A stretch of DNA of 64,000 nt, from NCBI RefSeq assembly GCF_021729015.1, contig NZ_JAJQQZ010000002.1, positions 434,001 through 498,000 of the forward strand, given 5' to 3'. The translations under genes and the position numbers were made by a program. Position 1 is the first letter of the stretch. Each line of letters starts with the position of its first letter. The DNA comes from Halobacterium rubrum. Its GTDB lineage: Archaea; Halobacteriota; Halobacteria; Halobacteriales; Halobacteriaceae. This document shows positions 17,985-39,947 of the stretch, in pieces. The notes beneath the pieces were generated by a model. The model searched no databases. It had not been told where the DNA came from and saw only the letters and a list, made by a program, of their open reading frames with translations.

Positions 17985-19154
17985 TCAATGGGCCCCAATG
18001 TCGGACGCGCAGCTGGAACATTGAACGGCGCCATCAATCGACCCGAGTGATCTGTCTTCAGTGAGCTCTTCGTTACAAGAGGAGCAACGGACGTCCTCAG
18101 TTATTCCAACACCACTGCCATATCCAACCGTGATAGAGCAGTCGCCGTCTTCGTACTGAAGCATCAACGTGACCTCTCCCCGTTCGTATTCTACTTGTGT
18201 GAGAGTGAGAGGAGAAATCCGAACATCCAGAGCGTGACGTTCTCGAATTTCACGTTGTCTTTCAGGAAATCCTTGCTCCCGGCGCTTGCGTAACTCAGCA
18301 AGGTCAGTTTCAATTTCTTCGAACTCCGACTTCAGTTCGTTCCGTTCCTCAAGCACTTGGACCCGATCCGCCTGTTCGCTATCATTAATCCTCTCACTGA
18401 GATCATCAATCTTCGAGGAAAGGTTTGAGCGCGTCTCTTCCAGTTCCTGAATGCGTTGCTGCTGCATTTGGCGGAATTCTTCGACCTCCGCATCAGCAGC
18501 TCTGGACGCCTCTTGATGAACCTCGTCAATCCTCTCTTCAATGACCGCCTCAAGGTGACTACGAGCAGATTTGATGGTCGAGCGAACATCCGCAACACCC
18601 ATCTTCGCGGGGTCGCTCTCTGCCGCTTTCTCATCCAGAGAAGTCAACCGAAGAAACGTCTCTTCCAAGTTTGGAAGCCGTTCGTCCGATCTGGCGTCTA
18701 CCGCAATTGCGCGGAGAAGTTCAGTCTGGTATTCGCTGACTGTCTCGATACTTACTCGAAAGAGCACCACAATCGCAGTCCGGTCGTAGTACGGAGTGAA
18801 TTGCGTATCCCGCACCGTTACATCGCTTTCTCGAAGCCAACCAGGAATCTCGATCGGCGTATTCTCTGTCGCTATCGAGATTTTACCCGTTGAGTGCTGG
18901 CTGCTCGCCTCGGACAGAAGCTGTTGGCAGAGTTGGCTCTCGGGATGAAGCGGTTCGCCAGTGGTTTCCTCGTCCGAGGTGCTCCCACAGATGATCCGGA
19001 GGTTTCTCCCAGATAGCTCGGTGTCCGCCGTATCAGGGATAGTAACGTCCCAACTGTCCCCCTGCTTTTCGATTGTACATCCGAGTGACTGAAGATACTG
19101 GTCTGTAAATCGTTCCACAGCCGACTGCGTCACAGGAAGTGCCGCGTCAGTCAT
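17985..19154 (-). CDS. Coiled-coil zinc-ribbon partner of the SNF2 helicase
   Basis: A 389-residue protein. An N-terminal alpha/beta region (about 1-160), a long coiled coil (about 190-310) and a C-terminal zinc ribbon made of two CSSC pairs are visible; the last residues are SDIGAH. No catalytic motif is recognised. The start is the ATG at 19154, which overlaps the SNF2 stop by eight bases (ATGACTGA); the longer frame would add 11 residues. The tight coupling implies a complex with the helicase. It might recognise DNA or the DUF499/DUF1156 proteins encoded nearby; this is inference. Confidence 0.75.
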   Translation of the reverse strand: MTDAALPVTQSAVERFTDQYLQSLGCTIEKQGDSWDVTIPDTADTELSGRNLRIICGSTSDEETTGEPLHPESQLCQQLLSEASSQHSTGKISIATENTPIEIPGWLRESDVTVRDTQFTPYYDRTAIVVLFRVSIETVSEYQTELLRAIAVDARSDERLPNLEETFLRLTSLDEKAAESDPAKMGVADVRSTIKSARSHLEAVIEERIDEVHQEASRAADAEVEEFRQMQQQRIQELEETRSNLSSKIDDLSERINDSEQADRVQVLEERNELKSEFEEIETDLAELRKRREQGFPERQREIRERHALDVRISPLTLTQVEYERGEVTLMLQYEDGDCSITVGYGSGVGITEDVRCSSCNEELTEDRSLGSIDGAVQCSSCASDIGAH

Positions 19155-20901
19155 CGCTTGCACCCAAATCAAAGCCCTCGAACACACCGCTGTTGAACTC
19201 TTCCAGTTTATCCGCGAGGTCGCGCTGCTCCTGAAGGTCGACAGCCATGTCGTCGAAGTCGTTCTCGAGGTCGACTTCGGAACCCGCGTTCACAAGTCGC
19301 TCGAAGATCTCGTCTTCGAAGCTCGTGCCAGATTCCTCAAGCCGGCTGAGAATGGAGCTCAGTTCGCCCACGCTTTGTTGGAACAGATCGATCTTGTGGT
19401 AGAGACGCTCCAGAACGTATTCCTCCACAGTATCGTTCAACGCCATATTGAAGATGTACACGCTTCGCTTCTGACCAATCCGGTGTATGCGGCCGATGCG
19501 TTGTTCGACACGCATCGGGTTCCAGGGGAGGTCGTAGTTCACCATGATATTGCAGAACTGGAGATTCCGCCCTTCACTCATAGCGTCTGTAGAGACGAGC
19601 ACTCCACCTTCCGCCTCGAAGTTCTCGACGATGTCTTCTTTCTCCTGGCTGCTGTGGCCACCGTGGAAGGAGTGTACTGTATAGCCTTCGGCCGCGAGCC
19701 TGTCTAGCACCTGTCGTTGAGTCGCCCTGAACTGCGTGAATGCGATAACCCTCCCTTTCTCGACGTTTTCTCGTGCTTCCTCGACGATATCGAGAAGGCG
19801 CTCTTGTTTCGTGATAGTATCAATGTCATCGATCAGGTCCATGATCGATTCTAACTCGTCTGCGTGGGTGAGCTCCGATTGCTCGTCGAGACGTTTCCCA
19901 ATGGTTACTTCGAGGGCTGCAGGACTGCTGACGACCTCCTTCTGGAGAAGCATCAACACCAGCTTCTGGCCCTGATCCTGGCTGTAGGCGCCTTTAACGT
20001 AGTCGGATACTGCGTCGTACAGTTCACGTTCCTTCGGTGACGGATCGAACTTCCGGGTGTCGATAATGCGCTCGGTGAAATCAATATCTGTGTCGGCCCG
20101 CCGGTTCCGGATCATCACCTTGTTCAGGCGGTCCTGAAGCTCATCCCGGTTAACGAGCGTCTCCTGATTGCTGTTCACGAAGTACTGATGGAAGACGTCA
20201 CGAGTTCCGAAGAGACCGGGACGGAGTAATGAGACGACGTTGTAGAGGTCAGTGAGCTCGTTTTGAATCGGAGTTGCGGTGAGGAAGAACGCGTAGTTGT
20301 AGGAGAGTCGGTCAATCAAATCGTACCGGTCTGTTTCCTCGTTTTTGACGTAGTGAGCTTCGTCCAGAACAAGAACATCCCAGTCACGATTGAGCACCGT
20401 CGCACGATGCCGGTCGCTTTTCGCTGTGTCGATGCTCGCGATGATGTAGTCGTGGGAGTCGAAGCCCTCGAACTCGTCATCGTAGTTGCAGACGAAATTG
20501 AGGCCGAACTTCTCCAGCAGTTCAGCCTGCCACTGCTTGGCAAGCTGTGCAGGTGTGAGGATAAGAACCGAGTCGTCAGTCTCACGGAAGTGCATCTCCT
20601 TGAGAATCATACCGACCTCGATCGTCTTCCCCAGGCCGACCTCGTCGGCAAGCAGGGCTTTCCCATCCATCTCGAAGAGCGCGCGATACGCTGTATCGAC
20701 CTGATGCTCGAGCATCTTCACCGACTCTTCGTCAAGCTGCTTCAGCGACCTGAGTTCAGAGTCTGGCTGTCCGGCCTGAAGACGAACTGCTTGTACCGTC
20801 TGTATATGATCTTCCCCACCATCGGAATCCCCTAACGAGTCGAGAAGCTCGTCATTGTCCTCGTGAGTGACCTCGACGTCAACGAGGTCGTAATCGCTCA
20901 T
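19147..20901 (-). CDS. SNF2/HepA-type helicase
   Basis: A 584-residue superfamily 2 translocase. It has Walker A DEVGLGKT (86-93), motif Ia LTPAQLAKQW, DEAH (180-183), motif III LTATPIQN, and a helicase C domain ending in RIGRIHRIGQKRSVYIF. It lacks large accessory domains, so it is shorter than RapA. It would translocate on duplex DNA with ATP and displace bound proteins. The promoter region faces that of the membrane protein at 21197. SNF2 helicases of this type were noted next to COG1483 (DUF499) and COG1743 (DUF1156) genes in predicted defence loci, and both partners are present here. Confidence 0.9.
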   Translation of the reverse strand: MSDYDLVDVEVTHEDNDELLDSLGDSDGGEDHIQTVQAVRLQAGQPDSELRSLKQLDEESVKMLEHQVDTAYRALFEMDGKALLADEVGLGKTIEVGMILKEMHFRETDDSVLILTPAQLAKQWQAELLEKFGLNFVCNYDDEFEGFDSHDYIIASIDTAKSDRHRATVLNRDWDVLVLDEAHYVKNEETDRYDLIDRLSYNYAFFLTATPIQNELTDLYNVVSLLRPGLFGTRDVFHQYFVNSNQETLVNRDELQDRLNKVMIRNRRADTDIDFTERIIDTRKFDPSPKERELYDAVSDYVKGAYSQDQGQKLVLMLLQKEVVSSPAALEVTIGKRLDEQSELTHADELESIMDLIDDIDTITKQERLLDIVEEARENVEKGRVIAFTQFRATQRQVLDRLAAEGYTVHSFHGGHSSQEKEDIVENFEAEGGVLVSTDAMSEGRNLQFCNIMVNYDLPWNPMRVEQRIGRIHRIGQKRSVYIFNMALNDTVEEYVLERLYHKIDLFQQSVGELSSILSRLEESGTSFEDEIFERLVNAGSEVDLENDFDDMAVDLQEQRDLADKLEEFNSGVFEGFDLGASDD

Positions 20902-22014: not shown

Positions 22015-25000
22015 ATGGCAGAAACTGATGCCTTGTCCCAGACGCTCACAGACACGGTCACCCTGAGCCGTGAACTTCGAGAGGAGGGACAGATAGACGG
22101 GCAAGTAAAACTCTACAACGTCGACGACGACGAGGAGTTCGAGTCTGACGCCGACCTCTTCTTCGACCGGACGCTGATGACCCAGGGGCTGCGGGAAGCA
22201 CTGTCGATTCTGCGGGATTCGCTAACCGGCGACGACCCACGTGGGACACACATTCTCTACGGACCGTACGGCAGTGGAAAGTCCCACCAGATGGTGGCGC
22301 TGTACCACTGCTTCGACGACCCGGCCGCGGCCGGTACCTGGGCAAGTGACTCTATTGAGGGCTTCGAGAGTTCACTGCCTAGCGACGCGACTCCAATCAC
22401 TGTCGCGATGCAGAACGAGCAGTACGAGTATCTCTGGGAGCCATTCTTCGAAGCTCTGAACTTCGACCCGGGGACGTACGAGTCGGGAGGTTATCCCGAC
22501 ATGCAGACGATTCAGGACGCCGTAGGCGACGAAACGGTCGCATTCTTCGTCGACGAACTCGAGGACTGGTTCGACACCCTCCAGGGTGACCGAAAGAGCG
22601 CGAACAAGGCGTTCCTCCAGTCATTGCTCGAATCGACGGCCCTCTCGGATCTCGAACTCTACACTATCGTTTCTGTGCTCCGAGAAGGGTCCGAGGTTCA
22701 CGACATTCTCAATCGGGAGCAGGCAATCGAGGTCAACATGAACAATCAGGTGGACAAACGCGAGGTTCTCCGACACCGCCTGATTGACTCAGTGAACGAG
22801 AATGCTGCCCGCGAGATTGTCAACGGGTACTTCGACGCCTACGATCAGTCTGACCACGTCTCTCTCCCCGACAATCTGCTATCAGATATGCACGACCTCT
22901 ACCCGTTCCATCCTGTGCTGCTTGACGCCCTCGAAACCCGATACTATGCCGACGAGGACAACCAGAACACGCGCGGGATGATCTACCTGTTCTCGAAGGT
23001 CCTGCTGCAGATGCAAGACGAGACGGACCTCATCACCCATGGGGACATCGACGCCATCGAGTTCGAGGACGAACTTGCGAAGATCAACTACGAGCGGCTG
23101 AACGCGGCGACGGGTGACATCAAGAGCCGTATCGACACAGACGAGGTCCCGCACGGCCGACGCATCCTGAATACGATTCTCCTCTACTCGCTGAAGCCCA
23201 GTGAGGGCGAGGGTGCAGACGTCTCCGAGATTATCATGGGGGCCTACCAGACGGGCGAGCTCGTCTCCGACGTCGTGCTCAACCTCGAACGGCTCCACGG
23301 CGTCGCGTGGCACCTGCACAAGCTCAACGGGAAGTACGCCATCCGCGACCGGCAGAACCCGAACGCACTTATCCGAAACGCAGCAGTCGACGTCTCCGAA
23401 ACCTCAGCGAAGGCCGAGATAGCGGACTTCATCACCGACATCTTCGGTTCGAACGCGTACCCGGTGGGGTTCCGCACGAACGATATGCGGGACATTCCCG
23501 ACGACCGGGAAGTCAAAGTCATCGTCAAAGACGATCAGTGGACGCAGAAGGAAGTCAAGAAGGTCATCACGAACGATGGACGTGGACGCGAGTGGCGTAA
23601 CACCCTCGTCTTCGTCCAGCCGTCCGGTGACAAGGCCATCGAGTCCGGCACGCGGTACATCGACAAAGCGCGGTACATCGAGGGGGCACGGCAGGTGCTC
23701 GCCGACGAGTCTCTCGACGAGGAGATCCGCGACTCGATCCAGGGGATGAAAAATCAGGAGAAAAGCGAGCTCCAGGAGGAGCTCCAACTCCTCTACGGGG
23801 AGGTGCTCGATGGCGAGGACCTGCTCAACGAGTGGGAGGACATGACCCCGATGGACCTGGACGTCTATGTTGTGGACGACGCGGAGCTGAACGCATCAAA
23901 CATCGCTGGCTCCGCTGCGGCCGACCCATTCGACCTCCAGTCGCACGTCTGGGATATTGCCGAGGACCTGCTCGACCGTCGGGGTGAAATCTCCGTCGAA
24001 GACCTCTATGAGGCGTTCTTGCGGGATCCGGATCTGCCTATCCCCGGCAGCTCCAACGACGTGCTGAACGCGACTGTGAAGGCACTGAGCGACAAACCAG
24101 TGCTCGCTCGCGACTCCGGTGGGTTCCGTGACGACCTCGCCGGCAGTTCCCTGGATACAGTACTTGTCCTGCAGGATGACGTGGACCTCTGGGGTGTCGA
24201 CGACGTCGAACAGGAGATTCGCAAGCGCTTCGGTAGCGGCACGACGGCTCTCGACATCGGGGACTTCGAACTGGGGCTAGTTCAGGACGGTGAGGTATGG
24301 ATTGACGGTGACAGTCACGACGTCGTAATGCGCGCTATCGGTCGGTTGAGTAGCGAGGACCAGTACGTCATCGTCCGCGGCAACGAGATTCTCGAGAAGC
24401 CGCAATCCGACGCTGCATTGCGGGACGTGGGCGGTGCGACAGTCATCGGTGCATCCGACCTGGTAGACCGCATCGAGGGGCAAATTGGCGAGGAAGGATA
24501 CGCGAACCTCGACACCATCATCGGCGACGTACGCGCAGACGAAGCCGTGTTCCTGCCGCCGGATGAAACCGAATCCGTCGCCCGGGAAGCCGTCAACGAG
24601 TTCCTCGTGGACGATTACGTGCTCGAAGCCGGCGGTCGATACCTGGGTTCCCTCGGCGACCGAGAGCCGACGACTGTAAAGATCGTGCCGACGGTGCCGG
24701 ATCGGATCGGTGACCAGATTCTGGAGTACATCGAGGACCTTGAGGCCGGCGACCAGTTCACCGTGAACAAGGTCTCCGAGCGGTTCGACAGCAGCGTCGG
24801 CGAGTACATGGTGCGGACGTTCCTCCTCGAGAACATCGGGAAGGACGAGGAACCCGAGTACGTCGTCAACACGACCGGGTCGGACAAGGCCTCCGACTGG
24901 GTCCCCGGGTATCCGTTCCGAAAGGCCGACACTGACGCCGAGACGTGGCGCTTCGAGTACAACGGCGACGACGTTGCGGCGATGCGCAAGAAGTGGCGGT

Positions 25001-25221
25001 CGAACCACCAGACAGGAAGCGTCGAGTACGGCGACGTCACGTTCATGCTACCCGACAAGGAAGGCGTCCCGGGCGCGCTACAGGGAACTGCCGACGTCGA
25101 ACGTACCCAGGTCAGCGTGACGTTGCGCTCCGAGCAGGACTACACGAAAGTGCAAGACCTGTTCGAGCGGATGCCCGAGGAAGCGTCGAGTCTGAAGGTC
25201 GAGATCAGCTTCCAGAAGTAA
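22015..25221 (+). CDS. DUF499-family (COG1483) AAA+ ATPase
   Basis: A 1068-residue P-loop ATPase. Walker A is GPYGSGKSH (from residue 83); Walker B is FFVDELEDW near 180. The long C-terminal half includes a winged-helix-like part (RRGEISVEDLYEAFL) and ends VEISFQK. This is the organisation of the DUF499 family found beside DUF1156 methyltransferases in predicted anti-phage loci. The DUF1156 gene here lies 5 kb downstream, separated by a Fic gene and four paralogues. The final ~200 bases are repeated in decayed form at 26625-26828. It probably acts as a motor or loader that couples recognition to the methyltransferase or an effector; the biochemical role is unproven. Confidence 0.82.
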   Translation: MAETDALSQTLTDTVTLSRELREEGQIDGQVKLYNVDDDEEFESDADLFFDRTLMTQGLREALSILRDSLTGDDPRGTHILYGPYGSGKSHQMVALYHCFDDPAAAGTWASDSIEGFESSLPSDATPITVAMQNEQYEYLWEPFFEALNFDPGTYESGGYPDMQTIQDAVGDETVAFFVDELEDWFDTLQGDRKSANKAFLQSLLESTALSDLELYTIVSVLREGSEVHDILNREQAIEVNMNNQVDKREVLRHRLIDSVNENAAREIVNGYFDAYDQSDHVSLPDNLLSDMHDLYPFHPVLLDALETRYYADEDNQNTRGMIYLFSKVLLQMQDETDLITHGDIDAIEFEDELAKINYERLNAATGDIKSRIDTDEVPHGRRILNTILLYSLKPSEGEGADVSEIIMGAYQTGELVSDVVLNLERLHGVAWHLHKLNGKYAIRDRQNPNALIRNAAVDVSETSAKAEIADFITDIFGSNAYPVGFRTNDMRDIPDDREVKVIVKDDQWTQKEVKKVITNDGRGREWRNTLVFVQPSGDKAIESGTRYIDKARYIEGARQVLADESLDEEIRDSIQGMKNQEKSELQEELQLLYGEVLDGEDLLNEWEDMTPMDLDVYVVDDAELNASNIAGSAAADPFDLQSHVWDIAEDLLDRRGEISVEDLYEAFLRDPDLPIPGSSNDVLNATVKALSDKPVLARDSGGFRDDLAGSSLDTVLVLQDDVDLWGVDDVEQEIRKRFGSGTTALDIGDFELGLVQDGEVWIDGDSHDVVMRAIGRLSSEDQYVIVRGNEILEKPQSDAALRDVGGATVIGASDLVDRIEGQIGEEGYANLDTIIGDVRADEAVFLPPDETESVAREAVNEFLVDDYVLEAGGRYLGSLGDREPTTVKIVPTVPDRIGDQILEYIEDLEAGDQFTVNKVSERFDSSVGEYMVRTFLLENIGKDEEPEYVVNTTGSDKASDWVPGYPFRKADTDAETWRFEYNGDDVAAMRKKWRSNHQTGSVEYGDVTFMLPDKEGVPGALQGTADVERTQVSVTLRSEQDYTKVQDLFERMPEEASSLKVEISFQK

Positions 25222-26624: not shown

Positions 26625-26828
26625 AGAAGGATGTTGAGTACGGTGGCGCACGTTCCGCTGCCAGACAAGGAGAAGTCCGTAGCGCTCTTCAGGGAACCAC
26701 AGACGTCAAACGAACCTGGCGAGCGTGACGCTGCGGTCTGGCCAGGATTACACGAAAGTCTAGGACTGGTTCGAGCGGGTGTCTGAGAGGGTATTGAGTC
26801 TGAAGTTGAGATAAGCTTCCAGAAGTAG
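26625..26828 (+). pseudogene. Decayed copy of the DUF499 ATPase 3' end
   Basis: This segment aligns with 25020-25220: GTTGAGTACGG matches GTCGAGTACGG, GAGCGTGACGCTGCG matches CAGCGTGACGTTGCG, GGATTACACGAAAG matches GGACTACACGAAAG, and the ends AGCTTCCAGAAGTA are identical. Reading frame is lost through substitutions, small indels and stops. It carries only the last ~65 codons. It is either the old tail of a DUF499 gene displaced when the Fic gene arrived with a replacement 3' end, or a remnant of a second gene copy. Confidence 0.8.
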
Positions 26829-30172: not shown

Positions 30173-30197
30173 ACCCACACTACACATGCGGAAGTAC

Positions 30198-30207
30198 AAA
30201 TAATTAT
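30198..30207 (-). promoter_or_regulatory. TATA-like element of the four-paralogue operon
   Basis: The minus strand reads ATAATTATTT, 26-35 bases before the ATG at 30172, the standard spacing for a leaderless transcript. It sets the start of the first paralogue and indicates that all four overlapping genes form one operon divergent from the methyltransferase gene. Confidence 0.6.
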
Positions 30208-30423
30208 GCTCTGCATCCATTCCCATGCTGTTCCATGCTCTATACGAAGAGAATATGCGGGGGGGCGGTGGGAGTGAGTAATGGACAGTTACTTTCTACG
30301 AAACTGACGCCACGTCGCTCAACGAATCTTCAGTTGTAGCATCAGTCCAAGAATCGGTTGATGCGCATCAATGAGAGCGCACACTTATGAGGCTCCCTCG
30401 TAATCCCTGCTACATACTGAATA

Positions 30424-33150
30424 ATGTCTGAGCAATCTGACCCTCCACAGGGACGGCAGGAGCGAACAGAACTCCCCATCGAACGCGGGTTCCCAATTGA
30501 ATTGGTGAACGATATCGGTGAAAAGGAAGGACGAGCTAAGCAGTGGTATCGCCCCATTTATACTATGCACAAGTGGTGGGCTCGCCGTCTTGGTTGTGTG
30601 TTCCGGGCGGTTTCTCTATATTCGCTTTTGGATAATGAATCAGAAGTCCAAGTTTCCGATCCTTCACAGGAAAATGAAAAGCTAGATAGTTTCTCCTCTT
30701 CAGCCGAGACGATCCATTCGCTTGTTGAATCTGTTTCTTTGGATGACCCGGTGGATCTGTGGGAACTCTACCCGAAGGACGTGAATGTAGAGGGAAAACG
30801 TGTTTTAGATCCATTTATGGGAGGGGGGACCTCCCTAGTAGAGGCTTCTAGATTTGGTGCCGAAGTTGTCGGGAATGACCTCAATCCTGTTGCTTGGTTT
30901 ATTACTAAAAAGGAGTTGGAGGCAGGTCAAGCTAATGTTGAAAAGCTAGAGCAAGAGTTTGGGAAAATCCAGGACCGAGTAGCTAGTAAGATAACACAAT
31001 ATTACGAGACTACCTGCCCGAATGGCGGTCACCGTGCGGATGTTATGTACTACTTATGGGCAAAAGAGTTGGATTGTACGTCCTGTGGGGAGATGGTCCC
31101 TCTGTTTAACGACTTCAGGGTAGGGAAGGGCCGATACGATAATAAGGACAAATACCACGTCTACTGTCCCGAATGTGAATCTGTGATTTTGGTTGATGAC
31201 TGGCGAGAGGAATGCACTTGTGACTGTGGATATACTTTTGTACCGGAAGAAGGGACGGTATCTGATGGAAAATATTCTTGCCGGTCCTGTGGTCAGCGAT
31301 ATGGAATTATTGACAGAATTGGCGAAAGAGGTGGGTTTGACAAACGTCTGTATGCCATCGAATATTACTGCCCCACCTGCGACAATGAAGGAAGAGACAA
31401 AGAGGAAATAAAGTCCTACAAACCAGCGACCGATGATGACCGGGAGCTATACCAAGCTGCTAAAACAGAGTGGGAAAACAGCGAAGACCTTACCAGATAC
31501 GTCCCAGATGGACAGATTCCGGTGGGGATTAAAACCGACAGTTCTGCTTTTGATGGAGGAATTGGTGGCGGATTTAACGTCCTGAAGAAGGGTTATGAGA
31601 AGTGGGAGGATATGTTTAACAGCCGTCAGCTACTCTGCTTAAGCTCCCTCCTGAAGGAAATAGATCAAGTTGAAGACAAGTCGGCGCGTGAGTACCTCCT
31701 TCTGGCATTCACCGAGTCCCTCAATTATAACAGTATGATGATTGGATATAACGCAGGTCGAAACCATTCTGTTAATATGTTTAATACTAATTCGTTTGAT
31801 CCGCCTCACAAGCCTGCGGAAGGTAACGTATGGGGTACTGAGTACGGTATCGGAACATTCCAATCCACTTGGAAGATGATTATTCGGGGGTGTGAATATG
31901 GTCGGTCCCCAACAGAGCGCTATATGAAATATCCTAAAGAGGATGGAAAGCCTGAGTTCATTACAGACCCGTCCTTGTCTGAACCAGATACCGTGGAGAC
32001 AGGCGAATTCAAGACGTCAATTGGTCGCGATTTCACGCTCCATTGCGGGGATATGCGTGATTTAGAAACTGAAGAGCTGTTTGATGCAGTGATAACTGAC
32101 CCACCCTATTATGATAATGTCATATATTCAGAACTATCTAACTATTTTTATGTCTGGCAACGCCTCATACTTCAAGACGAGTATGGTGAATTCGAATCGG
32201 AGCTGACCAATAGCGAGTCCAGTATTGTAGCAAACCCTGCTGAGGGGAAGGGGGCTGAAGAATTTGAGTCGGAGATCAAGCAAGGATTCGCCAATATCAA
32301 AAGATTGTTGAAAGATGATGGTGTGCTATCCTTCACATATCACCATAGTGACTCCGAGTCATGGGGTGAATTGCTGGAAGCATTGTGCGATGTTGGATTT
32401 GAGGTGACTGCTACGTATCCCATTAGCGCAGATCAAGTGAAATTTGGGAACAACGTAATTGGAAAAGCGGTTTCGTTTGATATCTTAGTCGTTGCTCGCC
32501 CTACGGAGGAGACGACTGCGATGAGCTGGGACTCCCTCCGCCGCGAAATATATCGGACTGCCAGACGGACTCGTAGGAGACTTGAAGAAGATCGAAATCT
32601 CTCACAAGGCGATATTGGCGTGATGGAAATGGGTGACTGTTTCCGAGAATATTCCAAGCACCACGGGAAAGTTCAGCGGGATGGTGAAATAATGAGTGCG
32701 AAGGATGTCGTCCAAGAAATCTACGGCATCATCCAGGATGCTAGTGACATTGGTGTTGAAGATGTGTATGTTGATCTGTTGGATACGGACAATCCTTCGT
32801 ACGACGACGTCAATAAGCTTTGTCGCGGAACTAACGCCACGCCCGAGGAGCTGAAGGAGATGCGTCTATACAATCAGGACGACGGCTTCGAACTCGGCAC
32901 CTGGGACAACGAGAAGCGCCAGGCGTACATCCAGGAGCGCGTCAACGGCGACGACGGCGAACACCTCTCGAACCTCGACAAGCTCCAGTTCCTACGCTAC
33001 CGCTACGAGAAGGGCCAATCCGTTCAGAACTACGTCGAGAAGTGGGACGTCAACGATGACCTGCGTGAGCTCGCCGGCCGACTCGCCGACGTGACCGGCG
33101 ACGAAACGTACACGCGAGTGCTCGGAGACCGCGACATCACGAGCTACTGA
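30424..33150 (+). CDS. DUF1156-family (COG1743) adenine-specific DNA methyltransferase with zinc ribbons
   Basis: A 908-residue SAM-dependent N6-adenine methyltransferase. The DUF1156-like N-terminus (FPIELVNDIGEKEGRAKQWYRPIYTMHKWWARR region) precedes the SAM motif LDPFMGGGT (128-136) and NDLNPVAW; the catalytic DPPY is at 559-562. Between them lie several CxxC pairs (CTSCG, YCPEC, CRSCG, YCPTC) that form zinc ribbons. It probably marks host DNA and pairs with the DUF499 ATPase and SNF2 helicase. Base composition changes sharply near 32.82 kb: codons up to about 800 are AT-rich, while the last ~110 are GC-rich, so the gene looks mosaic. It is divergent from the four-paralogue operon. Confidence 0.88.
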   Translation: MSEQSDPPQGRQERTELPIERGFPIELVNDIGEKEGRAKQWYRPIYTMHKWWARRLGCVFRAVSLYSLLDNESEVQVSDPSQENEKLDSFSSSAETIHSLVESVSLDDPVDLWELYPKDVNVEGKRVLDPFMGGGTSLVEASRFGAEVVGNDLNPVAWFITKKELEAGQANVEKLEQEFGKIQDRVASKITQYYETTCPNGGHRADVMYYLWAKELDCTSCGEMVPLFNDFRVGKGRYDNKDKYHVYCPECESVILVDDWREECTCDCGYTFVPEEGTVSDGKYSCRSCGQRYGIIDRIGERGGFDKRLYAIEYYCPTCDNEGRDKEEIKSYKPATDDDRELYQAAKTEWENSEDLTRYVPDGQIPVGIKTDSSAFDGGIGGGFNVLKKGYEKWEDMFNSRQLLCLSSLLKEIDQVEDKSAREYLLLAFTESLNYNSMMIGYNAGRNHSVNMFNTNSFDPPHKPAEGNVWGTEYGIGTFQSTWKMIIRGCEYGRSPTERYMKYPKEDGKPEFITDPSLSEPDTVETGEFKTSIGRDFTLHCGDMRDLETEELFDAVITDPPYYDNVIYSELSNYFYVWQRLILQDEYGEFESELTNSESSIVANPAEGKGAEEFESEIKQGFANIKRLLKDDGVLSFTYHHSDSESWGELLEALCDVGFEVTATYPISADQVKFGNNVIGKAVSFDILVVARPTEETTAMSWDSLRREIYRTARRTRRRLEEDRNLSQGDIGVMEMGDCFREYSKHHGKVQRDGEIMSAKDVVQEIYGIIQDASDIGVEDVYVDLLDTDNPSYDDVNKLCRGTNATPEELKEMRLYNQDDGFELGTWDNEKRQAYIQERVNGDDGEHLSNLDKLQFLRYRYEKGQSVQNYVEKWDVNDDLRELAGRLADVTGDETYTRVLGDRDITSY

Positions 33151-33243
33151 CGGAGAACTCCACCATCGGCGTCGGGCCACCGATCCCGATTCGACCGTCT
33201 CTGGCAACCACATTTTACGTTCTCCTCCGTCGTTGAGCAGTCT

Positions 33244-33963
33244 ATGTCGCGTTCTGAGACGACCGTTGTCGGTGCCGACGCGTGCCCCGTCGGATGGTTC
33301 GCGACGGTGATCGACGGCAGTGAAATTAGAACAGAGACCCACGAGGAGTTCACCGACCTCTCCGAGAAGTACTCCGATGCGGACCGAATTCTCGTTGACA
33401 TCCCAATCGGGCTTCCGGAGACCAGCCGCCGTCGCTGCGACGAAGAAGCCAGTGATCTGCTTGGTAGTCGAGGGATCTCAGTCTTCTACCCACCATGTCA
33501 AACTGCAGCCGAAATCACGGACTACCAGGAGGCGAGCGACGAACACCGCGACCAAATCGGCCACGGACTCTCGCAGCAAGCACACAACATCGGAGAGAAG
33601 ATCCTGCAGGTCGCTGACGTCGTCGGAAAGCGATACGACGGGGTAGTACGCGAGAGTCATCCCGAACTCTGCTTCGCCGCACTGAACGGACAGCCGATAG
33701 CCTACTCGAAGTCGTCAGCCCCCGGCCGTGGCCTTCGGATGGAGTTACTCGATAACGAACTCGACGACGCCAAAGCCCTCTATCGGGATGCGTGCGATGA
33801 CTACCTGCGCAAGGAGGTCCGCAGAGACGACATCCTCGACGCCATGGTACTGGCAATCGCCGCAAAAGAGGAAGACCTGACCACGGTCCCAGAGAGTCCC
33901 TCGCAGGATGAACCCCGAATCTATTACCCGGACTTCGACGTCCCGGTACTGGACGGCAATTGA
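33244..33963 (+). CDS. DUF429 family protein
   Basis: A 239-residue protein with the DUF429 pattern: an opening VVGADACPVGW, ILVDIPIGLPE, RRRCDEEASDLLG, VFYPP and SQQAHNIGEKI followed by ESHPELCFAALNG. The family is predicted to have an RNase-H-like fold, with acidic residues in the first and second blocks as possible metal ligands, but its reaction is not known. It lies 93 bases after the methyltransferase gene and ten bases before the convergent DUF262 gene's stop. The DNA is GC-rich, like the 3' end of the methyltransferase gene, so both may have come in together. Confidence 0.8.
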   Translation: MSRSETTVVGADACPVGWFATVIDGSEIRTETHEEFTDLSEKYSDADRILVDIPIGLPETSRRRCDEEASDLLGSRGISVFYPPCQTAAEITDYQEASDEHRDQIGHGLSQQAHNIGEKILQVADVVGKRYDGVVRESHPELCFAALNGQPIAYSKSSAPGRGLRMELLDNELDDAKALYRDACDDYLRKEVRRDDILDAMVLAIAAKEEDLTTVPESPSQDEPRIYYPDFDVPVLDGN

Positions 33964-33972
33964 AGCCCAGAA

Positions 33973-35787
33973 CTACGCTTCCGATCCTGCGCTGGACAGC
34001 ATCGACAGCAGGTGCCGTTTGATCCGTTTTCGCCGCTCTGTCACGAACTGGCCGAAGTTTTCTAATTTGTGGTACTCCGGATCCTCAGGGATGAAGTGGC
34101 GCTGATAGAATCCTTCGTTCTGGTTCCGAACCCAGTCTTGGAATGACTCGTCCTGCTTCGTTTCGTTCTCGTTCTCTGTGAGTAGCTGGAGGTTCGCCAG
34201 TTTATCGCGCTCCTCCGTGAACTCGGCAATCTTGCTTTCAGGGAGACCCCGATCTCGAAGGTTCTCTTCTTCCAGTTTCGATGTAGGGAAGATGTGGTCC
34301 TGGTGGTACTGGACACTCCCCCAATCGTTCTCCGGGTAGAGCAGGGTGAGAGCGAGGAAAGTACGCTTACCTCCCTTCTCATTTTCCAAGACGTTTTCGG
34401 CGATTTCCTCGTTAAAGCCGACGACCTTGTTGAGCCCCTCAACCGCTTCGTTGATTTCCTGAAGCGGGAACTGTTCTCCGTCTGCCTTGCTCAGTTCGTC
34501 CCGAATAGTCCTAAGAACCGTGTCAGAATTCCCACTGAGTGTTCCGTTCAGAAGCGTTGTGAGCAGCCACTTCTTCATCGCCTGTTTGGTCTGATGATAC
34601 TCTTCCGCGTTCTGCTGCAGGTGGTCTACTGTCAGCCCGGAATTCTTGAAGTAATACGCAAGTGGGATGACAGCGTTGCGACTTGTGAGCGTATTCTCGT
34701 CAATCCCGAACTGGTTGACTAGTGTTGCAGCAGCCTTGATTGCCGTCCGAATTGACTCCCACTCGTTCTCTATTTTGGAGACGTTTTCTCGGTTGAATTG
34801 TCCAACCCGGTACCGAACTGGGAGGTCGCTGAGCACGAGACAGGACTTGAGGAGGAAATCCTTGTCATAGTTGTTAGTCGAGGGTAGCTGCGTGTTCAGA
34901 TAGTCGACGAAGGACGTCAGCTCCTCCCTCGCATCGTATTTCTCCCAGTTCGCTGTTGCAATCGACAGGAGTAAATCGGACTTCTGGAGCTGGGTTCCGC
35001 CATCATTTGTCCGGATGAAGATATCGAGGACCCTGTCGATGTTCTGTTCCTTTTCCTCGAAATACGTGATGTAGGCTTTGTCGTGAATCGCCCGCCAGAG
35101 TGCCCGGAGATTTCGACCGACGTTTCGTTCACGCTCTCGGTCCAGGTGGTCGGCGTACTGGTCTTTCACCTCGAACACGAGGTCCTCCTGGTCCTCGTTC
35201 TTCGGGTAGTTCAGAATCGCTCCTGCTCGGAACCACAAATCGTCCCCCCGTGTAACTACTCGTTCGTCGTACTGGTCCATCGGCAAGAACGCGAAATCGT
35301 ATCGAGATTGTCGGTCTCCATCTTCAGAGAGCTCCTCTTCCGGATTCGAGGTGATGTTGAGATACAGCCGGGATTTGTTCCAGGCGTCCTCGTTCCGGTA
35401 CCACTTGTAATCCTGTTTGTAGGTGTACGTCCCCTTCAATCCAATGTAGAACGAGGAGAGCCGTTGTTGACCGTCGAGAATCAGCTTGAGGTCTCCAGCA
35501 CCATCGGGAACCACCTCGGAGTTCCGGGACTGAGCGTTCGTGTTGATGTACTTCGTCGTGGTGATGTAGTCCTTGATGAAGCCGTACATCTTGTACTCGT
35601 CCCGGTTCTCGTCGCGAATATCCCAGTAGAGAAACGTACCAATTGGGTAGCCCTGAAGGACCGAATCAAAGAGATCAGTAATTTGATCGCGTTCCCAGAC
35701 GATTTCTCGTTGGATAGCCGGTAGAAGATAATCTTCGTTCTGAATATGGTGAACTGCCTCCGAGATCGTCACGCGCTGATCATACAT
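33973..35787 (-). CDS. GmrSD-like DUF262/DUF1524 modification-dependent endonuclease
   Basis: A 604-residue fusion. The N-terminal DUF262 (ParB/Srx-like) domain has LPAIQREIVW, GYPIGTFLYW and the nucleotide-binding DGQQRL motif (105-110), followed by FIRTNDGGTQL. The C-terminal DUF1524 region has QDHIFP and KLANLQLL with ENENETK, the His-Me-finger nuclease pattern. GmrSD and BrxU-type enzymes with these two domains cut modified (glucosylated or methylated) phage DNA using NTP. Length fits a single-chain GmrSD. The gene stands alone, between DUF429 and a small unknown gene, and is not coupled to a methyltransferase. Confidence 0.87.
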   Translation of the reverse strand: MYDQRVTISEAVHHIQNEDYLLPAIQREIVWERDQITDLFDSVLQGYPIGTFLYWDIRDENRDEYKMYGFIKDYITTTKYINTNAQSRNSEVVPDGAGDLKLILDGQQRLSSFYIGLKGTYTYKQDYKWYRNEDAWNKSRLYLNITSNPEEELSEDGDRQSRYDFAFLPMDQYDERVVTRGDDLWFRAGAILNYPKNEDQEDLVFEVKDQYADHLDRERERNVGRNLRALWRAIHDKAYITYFEEKEQNIDRVLDIFIRTNDGGTQLQKSDLLLSIATANWEKYDAREELTSFVDYLNTQLPSTNNYDKDFLLKSCLVLSDLPVRYRVGQFNRENVSKIENEWESIRTAIKAAATLVNQFGIDENTLTSRNAVIPLAYYFKNSGLTVDHLQQNAEEYHQTKQAMKKWLLTTLLNGTLSGNSDTVLRTIRDELSKADGEQFPLQEINEAVEGLNKVVGFNEEIAENVLENEKGGKRTFLALTLLYPENDWGSVQYHQDHIFPTSKLEEENLRDRGLPESKIAEFTEERDKLANLQLLTENENETKQDESFQDWVRNQNEGFYQRHFIPEDPEYHKLENFGQFVTERRKRIKRHLLSMLSSAGSEA

Positions 35788-35989
35788 GGCTGATAATGTC
35801 TCCGGGGACTCACTAATAGCTTCTTAGCAACCTATAGAGAGAATGCCGCTACAAGCGCTTCATTGGCGAAGTGGTAAACTGAGTTTGAAACTAATTCAGA
35901 GAGGTGGCTTCTAGAGAATGGCGTTACGCAGGAGAGACACCTAGCAGCACATGTTACTTAATGCAGCAGTGGGAAAGATTTGCTAAGAG

Positions 35990-36373
35990 ATGGCAGGACC
36001 AGGCCAAATCCCCGGACGGTACAATATTATTCTCGAAGGGAAGTATGAAGGATTTGATCATCAAATGCCTGTAGAAGAGTTCATTCAACGCCTGAAGGAA
36101 GACAATGTGCCAAACAAGGTTAGCGTGGTCGGACTGGGGCAGGCGTTCACTGATGGGGACCTGATAGACGAGCTCGCCCACGAGATGGATCGCCGAGCAA
36201 ACGATTTGGAATACCAAACGCCGACCGTCCAGTTCGTCGTCGAGGGGTCGTTCCATCGGAGCGGGAAAACGTACGATCTGAGACACGACAATAATCTATA
36301 CCCCTTGCAAGATGTATTCGGTCCACAGCTCGAGCGGAAAGAGGACGGTGACTGGCTCGTCGCGCCGTTCTGA
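35990..36373 (+). CDS. Unrecognised 127-residue protein
   Basis: A small soluble protein with an alternating beta pattern (YNIILEGKY, KVSVVGLG, VQFVVEGSF) and no membrane segment. No family is recognised. It starts with ATG GCA and ends 112 bases before the next small gene on the same strand. It could be a compact alpha/beta fold. No catalytic motif is visible, and its position between GmrSD and McrBC does not prove a role in restriction. Confidence 0.6.
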   Translation: MAGPGQIPGRYNIILEGKYEGFDHQMPVEEFIQRLKEDNVPNKVSVVGLGQAFTDGDLIDELAHEMDRRANDLEYQTPTVQFVVEGSFHRSGKTYDLRHDNNLYPLQDVFGPQLERKEDGDWLVAPF

Positions 36374-36485
36374 GTTTAGAAGAGGCCTGGTTCGGTTTTC
36401 TACAGATATTTCCTTATACCGGTTCGGAGACTCCCAGCCGCGTATAGGTTTATTTAATGATGCGCAATACGCTCTTTACACGCAA

Positions 36486-36948: not shown

Positions 36949-38706
36949 TTATAACAGCTTTAACGGCCCTTCTTTCTCTACCTCACCTGACCCGTCTATG
37001 AAGTAGAGGTCGATCCATTCCTTTCCACGATCTCGGCAGAATACGGGAATGCAAGTCGTTGTATGCTCGTATCGACGGTCGCAGCGAGTTTCAATTTGCT
37101 CTCGAGTCCAACCACCGTCCTGCTCCAGATCATACCGGTTCCGGACATTCCAGGAGTGCTCGTCGGCCGCAGCCTTGAGGACACGAAGGGAGAAATCTTG
37201 AGTGTCCTTGAAGGTGAACGGCCCGCTCATTTCCTTCGCCTCGCTGAGATCCGTCTCCTCGACGCCATCAAGGCAAAGCTGATTCTCTGCAACGGCACGG
37301 AAAGCATCTAATTCTGGATTCTTCTCGGCGAAAATGTCATGCAGGTACGTGTGGAGAACATCGTCGTAGGCTGAGAGGGAGAATTCCCCTTTGGGTGAGA
37401 CGATTTCCAGTTCAGCTCCGGTCTGTGTGACCTGCCGGCGCTTCGGCTCAAGCAATGGACAGAGAAACGCAAGCCGATCAGAGTGGAGAAGGTACGCATA
37501 GCTGAACAGCCGTGAACGTGATGGCGACTCCTTCACTGGATCGTGGCCTTCTGCATAATACTTCGAGTCGAGCACGGCCAGCGTTTCATCGCCTTCCTCT
37601 ACTGCGTGATCGGGTTGATGATAGACCTCATTTTCTCCTTCGAACGGGTTGACAGACGGCGACCTGACAGGAGTGACGTCGTCCAGCGTTTCCAGATGGT
37701 CGTAGGATTTCACGTTCTCGAGCTGGTTCTCTATCACCACCTGGGAGTACTGCTCAAACAGTGACTCCATGTTGAGCACGTAATCCACGACGAGGTCGCG
37801 GTCCCCCTCTGTCGTGGGAGTGCCGAGTGATGAGGCCACTAGGGCCTTTGAGACTTCGATAGCTTGCTGGTAGTAATGGCGCTGCTTCGGAAGGTCTTGT
37901 AGTGAGAAACGCCGATAATCGGGGATCCGGCGTCGACCACTACTTACCTCGAGTTGCTCGAGGTGACGCACTTCTTGGTGGATTTGTGAGAAGATGTGGT
38001 AGTACGCCTGGTGGTCGTACTTCTCCTCATACTGCTGAAAGAGCCGAAGGAGGTGCGTACCCGCGTAGTGGAGGAGAGAGTTCGCCGGATTGTCGTAATT
38101 GACCTCTTTCAGTAGGCAATGCTGCGTAGGTCGACCCTCTGCCTGATTGACGAGTGATTGACCGATGTCGATGACGCCACGCGGCTGCTCCAGATCAGCC
38201 CGTCGCGTCTCGAGGCGGCGTACGAAACCATTGCGATGGATATCTTCGAGACCATTGAGATAGTTGATCGCGAGAATCAGGAAGACGTCCTCAAGATCGA
38301 CGTCATCGGTACGGAATTCGTCGAGAGGAATGCCGTGGTACTCGACAGACCGTTTTCGTCCGTGAACCGCCAGCAGCATGTCGAAGATGTTGTCCCAATC
38401 GATTTTTGGCTCGATACGAAGGTTCGCTCGCGGGGTCAGGCTAACGATGCCAACGTTGTCCCGCGCAGTTACATGCATCACTGGGCCGTCAAGGCGCACG
38501 CGAACTACCCGGTATTCCTTGTCACTATCGTCAAGAGAGGCCTGGGTCTTTACGAAGATGTTGTCGGCTTCCTGATCGAACGATGCACGGCGAAGCTGGT
38601 CGTCGATAGAAGGAGGACAGCCCTCGATGCGAATCTCACCCCGTTCTGGAACGCTGAACGTCCCAGGTTCGTAGGTGTACGATGCGTCGATTTCCGAGAT
38701 GCTCAT
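36949..38706 (-). CDS. McrC-like PD-(D/E)XK nuclease subunit
   Basis: A 585-residue protein of the McrC type, the cutting subunit of a modification-dependent restriction complex. The N-terminal beta-rich part (to about 150) would contact the motor; a helical middle region follows; the nuclease core has Pro365-Asp366 and LDSKYY with Asp380-Ser-Lys382 as the D-x-K catalytic pair, preceded by Glu314. The last ~110 residues form an extra domain not usual in short McrC proteins. Its ATG overlaps the McrB-like stop by four bases (ATGA), so the two are translated together. Confidence 0.86.
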   Translation of the reverse strand: MSISEIDASYTYEPGTFSVPERGEIRIEGCPPSIDDQLRRASFDQEADNIFVKTQASLDDSDKEYRVVRVRLDGPVMHVTARDNVGIVSLTPRANLRIEPKIDWDNIFDMLLAVHGRKRSVEYHGIPLDEFRTDDVDLEDVFLILAINYLNGLEDIHRNGFVRRLETRRADLEQPRGVIDIGQSLVNQAEGRPTQHCLLKEVNYDNPANSLLHYAGTHLLRLFQQYEEKYDHQAYYHIFSQIHQEVRHLEQLEVSSGRRRIPDYRRFSLQDLPKQRHYYQQAIEVSKALVASSLGTPTTEGDRDLVVDYVLNMESLFEQYSQVVIENQLENVKSYDHLETLDDVTPVRSPSVNPFEGENEVYHQPDHAVEEGDETLAVLDSKYYAEGHDPVKESPSRSRLFSYAYLLHSDRLAFLCPLLEPKRRQVTQTGAELEIVSPKGEFSLSAYDDVLHTYLHDIFAEKNPELDAFRAVAENQLCLDGVEETDLSEAKEMSGPFTFKDTQDFSLRVLKAAADEHSWNVRNRYDLEQDGGWTREQIETRCDRRYEHTTTCIPVFCRDRGKEWIDLYFIDGSGEVEKEGPLKLL

Positions 38707-39947
38707 TGCTCGTACGAACCCATCTGACGGCGCTCAGCTTCGAGCTCTCGACTCGCGAGTTCTGCCGCAGGCCCGAGGTCAAACTTCTCGAAGGCCTTGT
38801 CTAGGGCCCGATAGTGCTCTTCGATCTGCTCGATTTGTGGGAAGGCTGCAGAGTTCAGTAGCCTTGGGACGATGAATGTGCGGAACGCCTGTCCGACAGC
38901 TTCCTCGGGGGCATCCATGTACAGCTCTTCGTCTTGGAGTGCTTCACGCAGGAAAACGGTCACGTCGCGATAGTGCATCGGGCCGAATCGCATGATTGGG
39001 CCACGTGACGCCTGTTCAGAACCGTTATTGATGCCGTCGTAATCTGCTTCGAAGAGTTCCAGCAACTCGTCGTTGTCGATGAGTGGAATCTCGCCAAGGT
39101 TCGACTCGATCCAGTCCGTGAACAGTGTCTTCCGGTCTTCATCCTCGTACTCGTCGAGTTCCACCATCGCAAAGCGGCGAGTGATCGCGTTATCTAGTTC
39201 GTTGACGGTCCGGTCAGACATATTCATCGTGCAGATGATGCTCAGGTCCTCGTCGAGCTCTATCGCCTCACCGTCGTCAGTCTCAATCAGCGTCTGATTA
39301 CGATTTTCAATAGCTGTGTAGAGAGGTCCGAAAATCTGGGAGATATCCGCGCGGGTAATTTCGTCCAGAATGACGGCGTAGGGGATTTCGAAATCACGAG
39401 TTCGCTTGACGCCCGATGTCACTGCGCCCAATTCGGTGTGGTAAGTAATTGAGCTCATCCGGGAACCAGAGAGATTCGGCCCGATGCCGCCGACGATGTC
39501 CTTTGCCGTCCAGGATGGTGTCGCAGTGTGAAGCGAATAGCCCACACAGTGACGGAGGGCAAGCTGCTTTGCAAACGTCGTCTTGCCCGTCCCAGTCGGC
39601 CCGTAGAGAACGACCGGTTTACCCGTTTTTAACGCAGTCCGTGCGTTCCGCTCGACATCCTCTGGAACGAGAATTGACTCCGGTGTATCGTCTCCCCGAG
39701 TTATCACCGTTCTCTTGAGATCCCGAGACGCCTTAGGAGACTTCAAAACTGCCCGTCGGATAGGACCTACACCCTGCCCTCCTTCGTGGTGGATGTCCAG
39801 TTGTTGCTCCAGGATGAGATACTCTAGGACATCCTCACTGTCAGCAGACTCAATCGCCTCGACTACTTGGTCGTCAACAGTCCGGAGGACGTTGAGGTTC
39901 TCCTTTGCATCATCGAGGGAGTAACCATCGCCCGAAGACGTGTTCAT
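38703..39947 (-). CDS. McrB-like AAA+ GTPase motor
   Basis: A 414-residue AAA+ NTPase. Walker A is GPTGTGKT (116-123), Walker B AVILDEITRA (191-200), and the McrB-type sensor/signature appears as NMSDRT followed by ITRRF. The ~90 residues before the AAA+ core are short and do not contain a recognisable EVE or DUF3578 modified-base reader, so target recognition may be through this unknown region or the long McrC. With McrC it should form a GTP-driven complex that cuts DNA at modified sites. A TATA-like TTTAAAA lies 24-30 bases before the ATG. Confidence 0.88.
   Translation of the reverse strand: MNTSSGDGYSLDDAKENLNVLRTVDDQVVEAIESADSEDVLEYLILEQQLDIHHEGGQGVGPIRRAVLKSPKASRDLKRTVITRGDDTPESILVPEDVERNARTALKTGKPVVLYGPTGTGKTTFAKQLALRHCVGYSLHTATPSWTAKDIVGGIGPNLSGSRMSSITYHTELGAVTSGVKRTRDFEIPYAVILDEITRADISQIFGPLYTAIENRNQTLIETDDGEAIELDEDLSIICTMNMSDRTVNELDNAITRRFAMVELDEYEDEDRKTLFTDWIESNLGEIPLIDNDELLELFEADYDGINNGSEQASRGPIMRFGPMHYRDVTVFLREALQDEELYMDAPEEAVGQAFRTFIVPRLLNSAAFPQIEQIEEHYRALDKAFEKFDLGPAAELASRELEAERRQMGSYEQ

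What the first reader, a model, noticed from the sequence alone, without database searches (positions are those of the whole stretch)
32780..32880. Abrupt base-composition change inside the methyltransferase gene
Codons before about 32.8 kb often end in A or T (for example GAT AAT GTC ATA TAT TCA); after about 32.85 kb nearly all end in C or G (GAC GGC TTC GAA CTC GGC). The reading frame is continuous. It suggests that the last ~110 codons, with the DUF429 gene after them, come from a different source by recombination, perhaps changing interaction or target specificity.
Basis: seen in the sequence. Interest (0 to 1): 0.5.

Follow-up and report, generated by a model that had tools for sequence, protein, structure and literature searches.

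The report
Defence methyltransferase with a swappable body
The sudden change in base composition inside this salt-loving archaeon's DNA-methylase gene marks where a freely exchanged, AT-rich front part joins a GC-rich tail that tends to stay with the rest of a virus-defence locus, so the locus can apparently swap its recognition part while keeping its connecting part.

Summary
In the MTase gene (30424-33150) GC at third codon positions jumps from 46% to 86% at 32833 (codon 804), far beyond synonymous shuffles. The gene is the DUF1156 methyltransferase of a DUF499 / SNF2-helicase / McrBC-like defence locus found across haloarchaea.

The step is not peculiar to the window: all 43 main-clade loci examined, window included, show a rise toward the 3' end, at codons 600-804 (median 695). 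It is a recombination boundary. Tail identity (codons 806-908) follows the core genes (rho 0.45-0.64, Mantel p 0.001, 27-39 loci each); codons 1-690 do not (rho -0.11 to 0.07). Of 29 locus pairs with DUF499 genes at least 93% identical, 27 have bodies under 75% identical. Halobacterium sp. KA-4 and genome G340 share a body with 8 differing codons up to codon 751, then differ in 32 codons in the tail, beside cores 95-96% identical.

DUF429 is occasional cargo. A changed methylation target and a docking role of the tail are inferred.

The parts
30424..32832 (+). MTase exchanged part: DUF1156 N-terminus, methylase core and variable Cys-rich insert (putative target-recognition region), low GC3
   Evidence: PF06634, N6_N4_Mtase hits; GC3 0.44-0.50; middle about 50-60% aa identity to homologues; invariant Cys pairs 218/221, 248/251, 286/289, 316/319; uncorrelated with core genes up to codon 690
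32773..32878 (+). junction: GC3 changepoint 32833; similarity breakpoints at codons 784-818 in the window, 793 in the G156 allele
32833..33150 (+). MTase tail, core-linked helical C-terminal region, GC3 0.86
   Evidence: AF2 models
22015..25221 (+). DUF499 ATPase, HmaC-like (core)
   Evidence: PF04465 E 9.9e-11; HmaC E 1.2e-18; cluster C1 in 36 of 47 sources
19147..20901 (-). SNF2-family helicase, DrmD/HmaA-like, no nuclease fusion seen (core)
   Evidence: PF00176, Helicase_C; DrmD, HmaA; C3 in 31 of 47 sources
17985..19187 (-). conserved 400-aa protein of unknown function; only weak hits (LmuB, PbeC, archaeal SMC-related)
   Evidence: C6 in 23 of 47 sources
35990..36373 (+). conserved 127-aa protein, unknown (core-linked by Mantel test)
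   Evidence: C5 in 28 of 47 sources
36949..38706 (-). McrC-like protein (core; apparently mosaic itself in the window)
   Evidence: PF10117 E 1.8e-12; C2 in 32 of 47
38703..39947 (-). McrB-like AAA ATPase (core)
   Evidence: AAA_5; McrB model E 3e-11, below its cut-off; C4 in 29 of 47
33244..33963 (+). DUF429 gene, variable cargo behind the MTase
   Evidence: PF04250 E 8.8e-49
33973..35787 (-). GmrSD/DUF262-type nuclease gene, variable cargo
   Evidence: PF03235, HEC-05 E 1.7e-198
26633..26825 (+). degenerate duplicate of the last ~198 bp of the DUF499 gene, between cargo genes
   Evidence: 75.8% to own DUF499 3' end

Best explanation
The methyltransferase gene is a two-part mosaic. Its first ~790-800 codons (DUF1156, methylase core, Cys-rich insert that is probably the target-recognition region) belong to an AT-rich pool of alleles exchanged between haloarchaea independently of the rest of the locus. 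Its last ~100 codons (in other members up to ~150-200) tend to descend with the DUF499 ATPase, SNF2 helicase and McrBC-like genes. Exchange most likely occurs by homologous recombination that ends in the strongly conserved 3' part of the MTase gene; the other end lies outside the gene, in the variable stretch behind DUF499 (in the KA-4/G340 pair about 50 bp before the start codon). The composition step is the exit point. SHOWN: the step, the mosaic, the (loose) linkage of the tail to the core, the free assortment of the body, and one very recent swap caught between two genomes. INFERRED: homologous recombination as the enzymology, a change of methylation motif by the swap, and a docking role of the tail. 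NOT DETERMINED: whether the join was made in this lineage or arrived ready-made.
For: Changepoint beyond synonymous shuffles. 43 of 43 main-clade loci have a GC3 rise toward the C-terminus, median codon 695, range 600-804; tail GC3 correlates with core-gene GC3 (rho 0.50-0.75), body GC3 does not (-0.03 to 0.22); tail above body in 43 of 43. Mantel tests on 42 distinct loci (27-39 with the partner gene): tail vs DUF499/McrC/SNF2/McrB rho 0.64/0.51/0.59/0.45, p 0.001; codons 1-200 and 200-690 vs the same genes -0.11 to 0.07, p >= 0.28; tail vs body -0.10; body vs codons 1-200 0.55. Protein level, 29 loci: tail vs DUF499 0.41 (p 0.005), body -0.02. Sliding windows place the family-wide switch at codons ~720-770. 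Of 29 pairs with DUF499 DNA identity >= 93%, 27 have bodies < 75% (56-75%). Recent swap: Halobacterium sp. KA-4 vs G340: helicase+DUF499 96% over 5383 bp, McrC-like 95%, unrelated sequence between DUF499 and MTase, MTase with 8 differing codons in 1-751 and 32 in 752-908. G156 vs KA-4: DUF499 96%, McrC-like 96%, codons 200-690 58%, tail 94%; break at codon 793, gain 29.9 vs maximum 8.1 in 300 permutations. Converse: L044/L065 body 94%, core 82-88%. Window: excess synonymous mismatch to the main clade 0.22 in codons 700-793, about 0 after; permutation p 0.0008, best break codon 818.
Against: AU tests on the short tail did not reject trees that keep the window with G156 (p 0.34) or outside the main clade (p 0.31); the test on codons 690-790 gave p 0.08. 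The amino-acid changepoint in the window alone is not significant (p 0.30), and when the same statistic is run on each of 42 main-clade members as control, the window's amino-acid value (2.27) is below the control median (3.16) and its synonymous value (4.62) is exceeded by one control (L005, 5.8): the window alone does not stand out, the case rests on the family. Tail linkage is loose: in the 29 pairs with DUF499 >= 93% the tail is 85-100% identical, median 90%, and L042/L043 share the whole MTase gene, tail included (100%), with DUF499 96% and SNF2 86%. At protein level tail vs SNF2 (p 0.058) and vs McrB-like (p 0.16) are not significant. GC3 step (median codon 695) and linkage switch (~720-770) do not coincide exactly. 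The window's own DUF499 has no near-identical partner in the sample (76-83% to the main loci).
Confidence: 0.85

Rival explanations
1. One reading: the tail with the DUF429 gene was imported into a resident AT-rich gene.
For: DUF429 of the closest type also follows the MTase in G283 (78% aa); in the tail tree the window falls among main-clade tails of other families, though the inner branch is weakly supported.
Against: The tail, not the body, follows the core genes and has host-like GC3; DUF429 was found in 1 of 70 other fetched loci and is absent behind the G156 allele; identity to G283 drops to 62% between tail and DUF429.
Confidence: 0.1
2. No recombination: the domains need different codons or were shaped by expression or selection on synonymous sites, giving a composition step in all homologues.
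For: All 43 main-clade loci have a step; it lies near the end of the methylase fold (last long Rossmann-like strand 686-693 in the model).
Against: The step position varies over 200 codons; some distant members are GC-rich along the whole gene (L061 78-88%, L062 70-88% per segment); body and tail identities are uncorrelated; the KA-4/G340 junction at codon 751/752 cannot come from selection on codons.
Confidence: 0.04
3. GC-biased gene conversion: the conserved tail recombines often and gains GC, the diverged body cannot recombine and stays AT-rich. This would explain the composition without an AT-rich donor pool.
For: Tail is the most conserved and GC-richest part; its GC3 follows that of the core.
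Against: Does not by itself explain why bodies assort independently of the core. Not exclusive of the main reading; not tested.
Confidence: 0.15
4. The window inherited a ready-made mosaic allele as one piece (the G156-type gene), so no recombination happened at this point in this lineage.
For: G156 has the same allele type: 86% DNA identity over the whole gene, its step at codon 788; window-G156 identity is about even along the gene, 78-92% per 40 codons; AU test does not reject window+G156 in the tail.
Against: G156's tail is closer to KA-4/G340-type tails (94%) than to the window's (about 89%), and the break positions differ (793 vs 804-818). Compatible with the main explanation; only the place of the event changes.
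Confidence: 0.4

Closest known systems
DUF499-centred BREX-related (BR) systems / Hma (PMC12839542: passages and sections 26, 29, 33 read; PMC8565338: passages read)
   Same: DUF499 ATPase, DUF1156 N6-methyltransferase with a Cys-rich (Zn-finger-like) insert and a conserved helical C-terminal region, SNF2 helicase
   Different: Haloarchaeal locus adds McrB/McrC-like genes; helicase is short without nuclease fusion; no PglZ seen among the 16 window proteins scanned with Pfam; the terms recombination, Mcr, haloarchae and Halobacteri do not occur in the main text of PMC12839542
Type I R-M hsdS and H. pylori target-recognition-domain movement (PMC3983042: abstract and outline seen; PMC7394358: search listing only)
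   Same: Recognition part swapped by recombination in conserved flanks while the rest of the system is kept
   Different: Here the exchanged unit is nearly the whole methyltransferase, across genera, and a short C-terminal tail goes with the core
BREX PglX/BrxX
   Same: Methyltransferase as specificity factor of a multi-gene defence system
   Different: According to PMC12839542 (section 26) canonical BREX MTases carry the TRD at the C-terminus; here the C-terminus is the conserved, core-linked part
Patchy R-M genes in Halobacteria (PMC6471742: passages read)
   Same: Frequent horizontal transfer of modification genes in haloarchaea
   Different: From the passages seen it treats presence and absence of whole genes; DUF1156 is not mentioned in its text

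Membership tests
DUF499-centred BREX-related / Hma system | DUF499 AAA+ ATPase | tested here: met
   PF04465 40.6 bits vs cut-off 23; HmaC E 1.2e-18; NCBIfam DUF499_antiphage hit far below its cut-off
DUF499-centred BREX-related / Hma system | DUF1156-containing N6-methyltransferase | tested here: met
   PF06634 30.7 bits vs cut-off 24; HmaB E 2.1e-32; NCBIfam DUF1156_antiphage below cut-off; N6 specificity itself not tested
DUF499-centred BREX-related / Hma system | SNF2-family helicase in the locus | tested here: met
   PF00176 and PF00271; DrmD and HmaA models
Type-1 BR | nuclease fused to the helicase C-terminus (79% of taxa according to PMC12839542) | tested here: not met
   584-aa helicase, Pfam shows only helicase domains
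Type-3 BR | PglZ and iSTAND in the core locus | tested here: inconclusive
   no PglZ among the 16 window proteins scanned with Pfam; the 400- and 127-aa proteins have no assignment, iSTAND not tested by fold
BREX | PglZ plus BrxC (DUF6079) core | tested here: not met
   no PglZ among the 16 window proteins scanned; ATPase is DUF499, BrxC only a weak PADLOC hit (E 2.9e-4)
C-terminal triad of HTH domains of BR methyltransferases | three HTH-like domains, the second a winged HTH | tested here: inconclusive
   AF2 gives helices from 702 to 898 with short strands at 816-824, but Foldseek found no significant match (best E 1.2)
TRD-swapping specificity genes (works like) | recognition region exchanged between otherwise like loci | tested here: met
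   that the insert is the TRD is taken from PMC12839542, not tested
TRD-swapping specificity genes (works like) | swap changes the methylated motif | not testable with these tools
   needs methylome data

The most novel reading that the evidence does not exclude
Haloarchaea keep a common, genus-crossing pool of AT-rich methyltransferase bodies that plug into a largely co-inherited defence core through a conserved 3' tail, which acts both as homology for recombination and as the protein's docking part. Recognition specificity of a multi-gene defence system would thus be a shared, swappable cassette, and the composition step is its visible seam.
Probability: 0.45. Interest if true: 0.7.

Novelty: new variant of a known kind. 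Interest (0 to 1): 0.54.

Why it matters
Specificity swapping is well known for bacterial Type I systems. Here the same logic appears in a DUF499/DUF1156 defence locus of archaea, across genera, with nearly the whole methyltransferase as the exchanged unit and a short tail that goes with the core. It points to a testable interface (tail with DUF499 ATPase), explains a composition break inside a defence gene, and gives natural pairs (KA-4 and G340 share a body; KA-4 and Haloglomus halophilum or G156 have like cores and different bodies) in which methylation motif should follow the body.

Tried and rejected
AU tests on the 103-codon tail: too short to place the window and G156 (p 0.31-0.34); a clade of window, G156 and L005 was rejected at p 0.037; codons 690-790 gave p 0.08. 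Changepoint for the window alone: amino acids p 0.30, codon positions 1+2 p 0.085, synonymous p 0.0008; controls on main members are as high or higher for amino acids. Site-specific integration: no tRNA in the window and only short chance-like repeats in 27000-36500; the window's genome has one MTase match of this family. Plasmids: 59 records at E <= 1e-50 (25 listed), full-length haloarchaeal matches at most 65% identical, so plasmids carry this family but no donor was found. HTH identity of the tail: not confirmed by Foldseek. The full model's 50 listed Foldseek matches are nearly all of methyltransferase fold, none at E <= 0.001. Synonymous identity of the tail looked very high at first (60-89% in codons 803-856 for the 30 rows shown), but much is shared codon bias (expected 60%, observed median 69%); that argument was replaced by comparison with main-clade pairs and by Mantel tests. 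Rows left out: Mantel tests used main-clade loci only (tail DNA identity to the window >= 80%): 29 of the 40 named loci, 65 of 70 sources had the gene, 55 were distinct, 42 of these main. More distant relatives were excluded because several have several MTases or other layouts; two of them have a reversed step (L057_14101, L062) and several are flat. The single-locus GC3 test covers the 42 main loci plus the window only.
Full report
CHECK OF THE OBSERVATION. The gene at 30424-33150 has GC3 of 0.32-0.62 in overlapping 50-codon blocks up to the one starting at codon 776 and 0.78-0.92 from codon 801 on. A one-break model puts the break at 32833 (before codon 804), with GC3 46.5% before and 85.8% after; the gain (32.1) is far outside 2000 shuffles among synonymous codons (maximum 8.8), so amino-acid content does not cause it. 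The frame is continuous. The window has 55% GC in a genome with about 70%: five 20-kb samples have 68-71% GC and 49 long ORFs in them a median GC3 of 0.78. The tail therefore looks like the host and the body does not.

WHAT THE GENE IS. The product has DUF1156 and N6/N4 methylase domains and matches HmaB and DUF1156 MTase models. In the same locus lie a DUF499 ATPase (HmaC-like), a SNF2 helicase (DrmD/HmaA-like), a 400-aa and a 127-aa protein of unknown function, and McrC- and McrB-like genes. In 46 named loci fetched with this MTase plus the window, the DUF499 cluster occurs in 36 of 47, McrC-like in 32, helicase in 31, McrB-like in 29, the 127-aa protein in 28, the 400-aa protein in 23 (several loci are cut by contig ends). 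The genes between DUF499 and MTase and between MTase and McrC differ from locus to locus; of 27 loci with DUF499 followed by the MTase on one strand, 7 have no gene of 100 aa or more between them and 20 have some. In the window these extra genes are Fic and four consecutive 279-288-aa proteins upstream, and DUF429 and GmrSD downstream. The system fits the DUF499-centred BREX-related (Hma) kind of PMC12839542, with an added McrBC-like pair; its subtype is not settled.

THE STEP IN THE FAMILY. 60 distinct full-length homologues were aligned with the window. The middle (residues ~200-600) is about 50-60% identical to the window, the C-terminal ~200 residues 76-98% in the 42 main-clade rows. The same contrast holds between other pairs, so high tail identity alone is no sign of recombination in the window. 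GC3 rises toward the C-terminus in all 43 main-clade loci of the larger set (window included), at a median of codon 695 (range 600-804); the window (804) and the allele of genome G156 (788) are the only ones at or beyond 780.

EVIDENCE FOR RECOMBINATION. (a) Window and G156 are outsiders to the main clade before the break and ordinary members after it: protein identity to the main clade is 84-88% in codons 701-803, where main members are 92-96% identical to one another (medians), but 89-98% in the tail against 91-96%. The codon-level excess mismatch of the window falls from 0.22 (codons 700-793) to about 0 (best break codon 818, p 0.0008 for synonymous sites; amino acids p 0.30); for G156 p 0.0002. 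(b) Among 42 distinct loci (27-39 with the partner gene), tail identity correlates with identity of DUF499, McrC-like, SNF2 and McrB-like genes (rho 0.64, 0.51, 0.59, 0.45; all p 0.001), codons 690-790 weakly (0.20-0.29), codons 1-690 not at all (-0.11 to 0.07). Body and tail are uncorrelated (-0.10), while codons 1-200 and 690-790 follow the body (0.55, 0.60). With first and second codon positions only, tail vs DUF499 is 0.41 and body 0.05 (27 loci); on proteins the tail is linked to DUF499 and McrC (0.41, 0.36) but not significantly to SNF2 and McrB-like (p 0.058, 0.16). Sliding windows show the change-over at codons ~720-770. (c) GC3 of the tail correlates with GC3 of the core genes (0.50-0.75), that of the body does not. 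(d) Of 29 locus pairs whose DUF499 genes are at least 93% identical, 27 have bodies of 56-75% identity; the two others have identical MTase genes. (e) A recent swap: Halobacterium sp. KA-4 (L069) and G340 (L156) have helicase and DUF499 at 96% over 5383 bp and McrC-like at 95%, unrelated sequence between DUF499 and MTase, and an MTase that is nearly identical from about 50 bp before the start codon to codon 751 (8 differing codons) and then differs in 32 of the last 157 codons, about as much as the core. (f) G156 against KA-4: DUF499 96%, McrC-like 96%, codons 200-690 58%, codons 690-790 73%, tail 94%, break at codon 793 with gain 29.9 against a maximum of 8.1 in 300 permutations; KA-4 against the Haloglomus halophilum plasmid: 97% over 5380 bp of helicase and DUF499, McrC-like 96%, body 68%. 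Conversely L044 and L065 share the body (94%) with cores at 82-88%.

RESULTS AGAINST. The AU tests are inconclusive. The single-row changepoint statistic of the window is not exceptional among main members: for amino acids it is below the control median, for synonymous sites one of 42 controls exceeds it. Tail linkage is loose: 85-100% identity (median 90%) in the 29 like-core pairs, and in L042/L043 the whole MTase gene with its tail is shared while SNF2 is 86%. The window has no near-identical core partner (DUF499 76-83% to main loci). The GC3 step and the linkage switch of the family differ by some tens of codons. G156's tail is closer to KA-4's than to the window's (94% vs about 89%), which suggests at least two exchanges at nearly the same place, but the tail tree cannot prove it.

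MECHANISM. The region from codon ~700 on is well conserved (median 82-89% DNA identity among main loci), a natural place for homologous recombination to end; the other end lies before the MTase start, since DUF499 is core-linked along the part tested (codons 1-1040) and the MTase start is not, as the KA-4/G340 pair shows directly. A degenerate copy of the DUF499 3' end at 26633-26825 is a plausible scar. The exchanged part holds the methylase core and an insert of roughly residues 170-530 with invariant Cys pairs; PMC12839542 describes such an insert as the target-recognition part in this kind of MTase, so the swap probably changes the methylated motif. The tail, in the same paper's scheme part of a C-terminal HTH triad (not confirmed here by fold search), goes with the core and may dock the MTase to it. 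These functional steps are inference.

DUF429. Relatives are common in haloarchaea (200 of 391 genomes at E <= 0.001). The nearest (G283, 78% aa) sits directly behind an MTase of this family, a second (G247, 68%) 1.6 kb behind one (coordinates). Of 70 fetched loci of this system only G283's holds one. It is best read as occasional cargo.

LITERATURE. Searches: DUF1156 with DUF499 (1 paper), DUF1156 (3 papers), haloarchaeal R-M with recombination (20 of 136 listed), BREX/PglX with recombination (15 of 43 listed), haloarchaeal defence with homologous recombination (12 of 33 listed), DUF499 with domain swapping (12 of 19 listed). No listed title or abstract start describes this mosaic; only open-licence papers are held, lists were capped, and four papers were opened in part (PMC12839542, PMC8565338, PMC6471742, PMC3983042).

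Noticed in passing
window 26633-26825: Degenerate duplicate (75.8%) of the last ~198 bp of the DUF499 gene, between the Fic gene and the next cargo genes; a 96-bp fragment of the same gene end lies in L045 3834-3927.
   Followed up: partly
window 36949-38706: The McrC-like gene looks mosaic itself: codons 61-300 are 61-64% identical to main-clade loci, codons 301-540 67-77%; a second boundary near 37800.
   Followed up: no
window 26854-30226: Four consecutive minus-strand genes of 279-288 aa that look alike by eye (charged, helical-looking); the one tested has no Pfam hit.
   Followed up: no
L007/L138 (G012) and L059: MTase open frames end near residue 760, just before the tail; G012 has no tail match, L059 has a tail fragment at 3665-3883.
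   Followed up: no
G018:C1:379994-384833: MTase gene split into three pieces separated by about 1.1 kb each.
   Followed up: no
G130:C3:30013-30078: A weak 66-bp match (E 7e-4) to the MTase 3' end lies about 1.2 kb downstream of the gene.
   Followed up: no
L048 and L056 (Halorussus ruber): Two to three MTase genes of this family in one locus around the DUF499 gene.
   Followed up: no
window 40373-41488: Tyrosine-integrase-like gene (SAM-like N-terminal domain E 8.9e-6, catalytic domain below cut-off) beside the McrB-like gene, at the edge of the defence locus.
   Followed up: no
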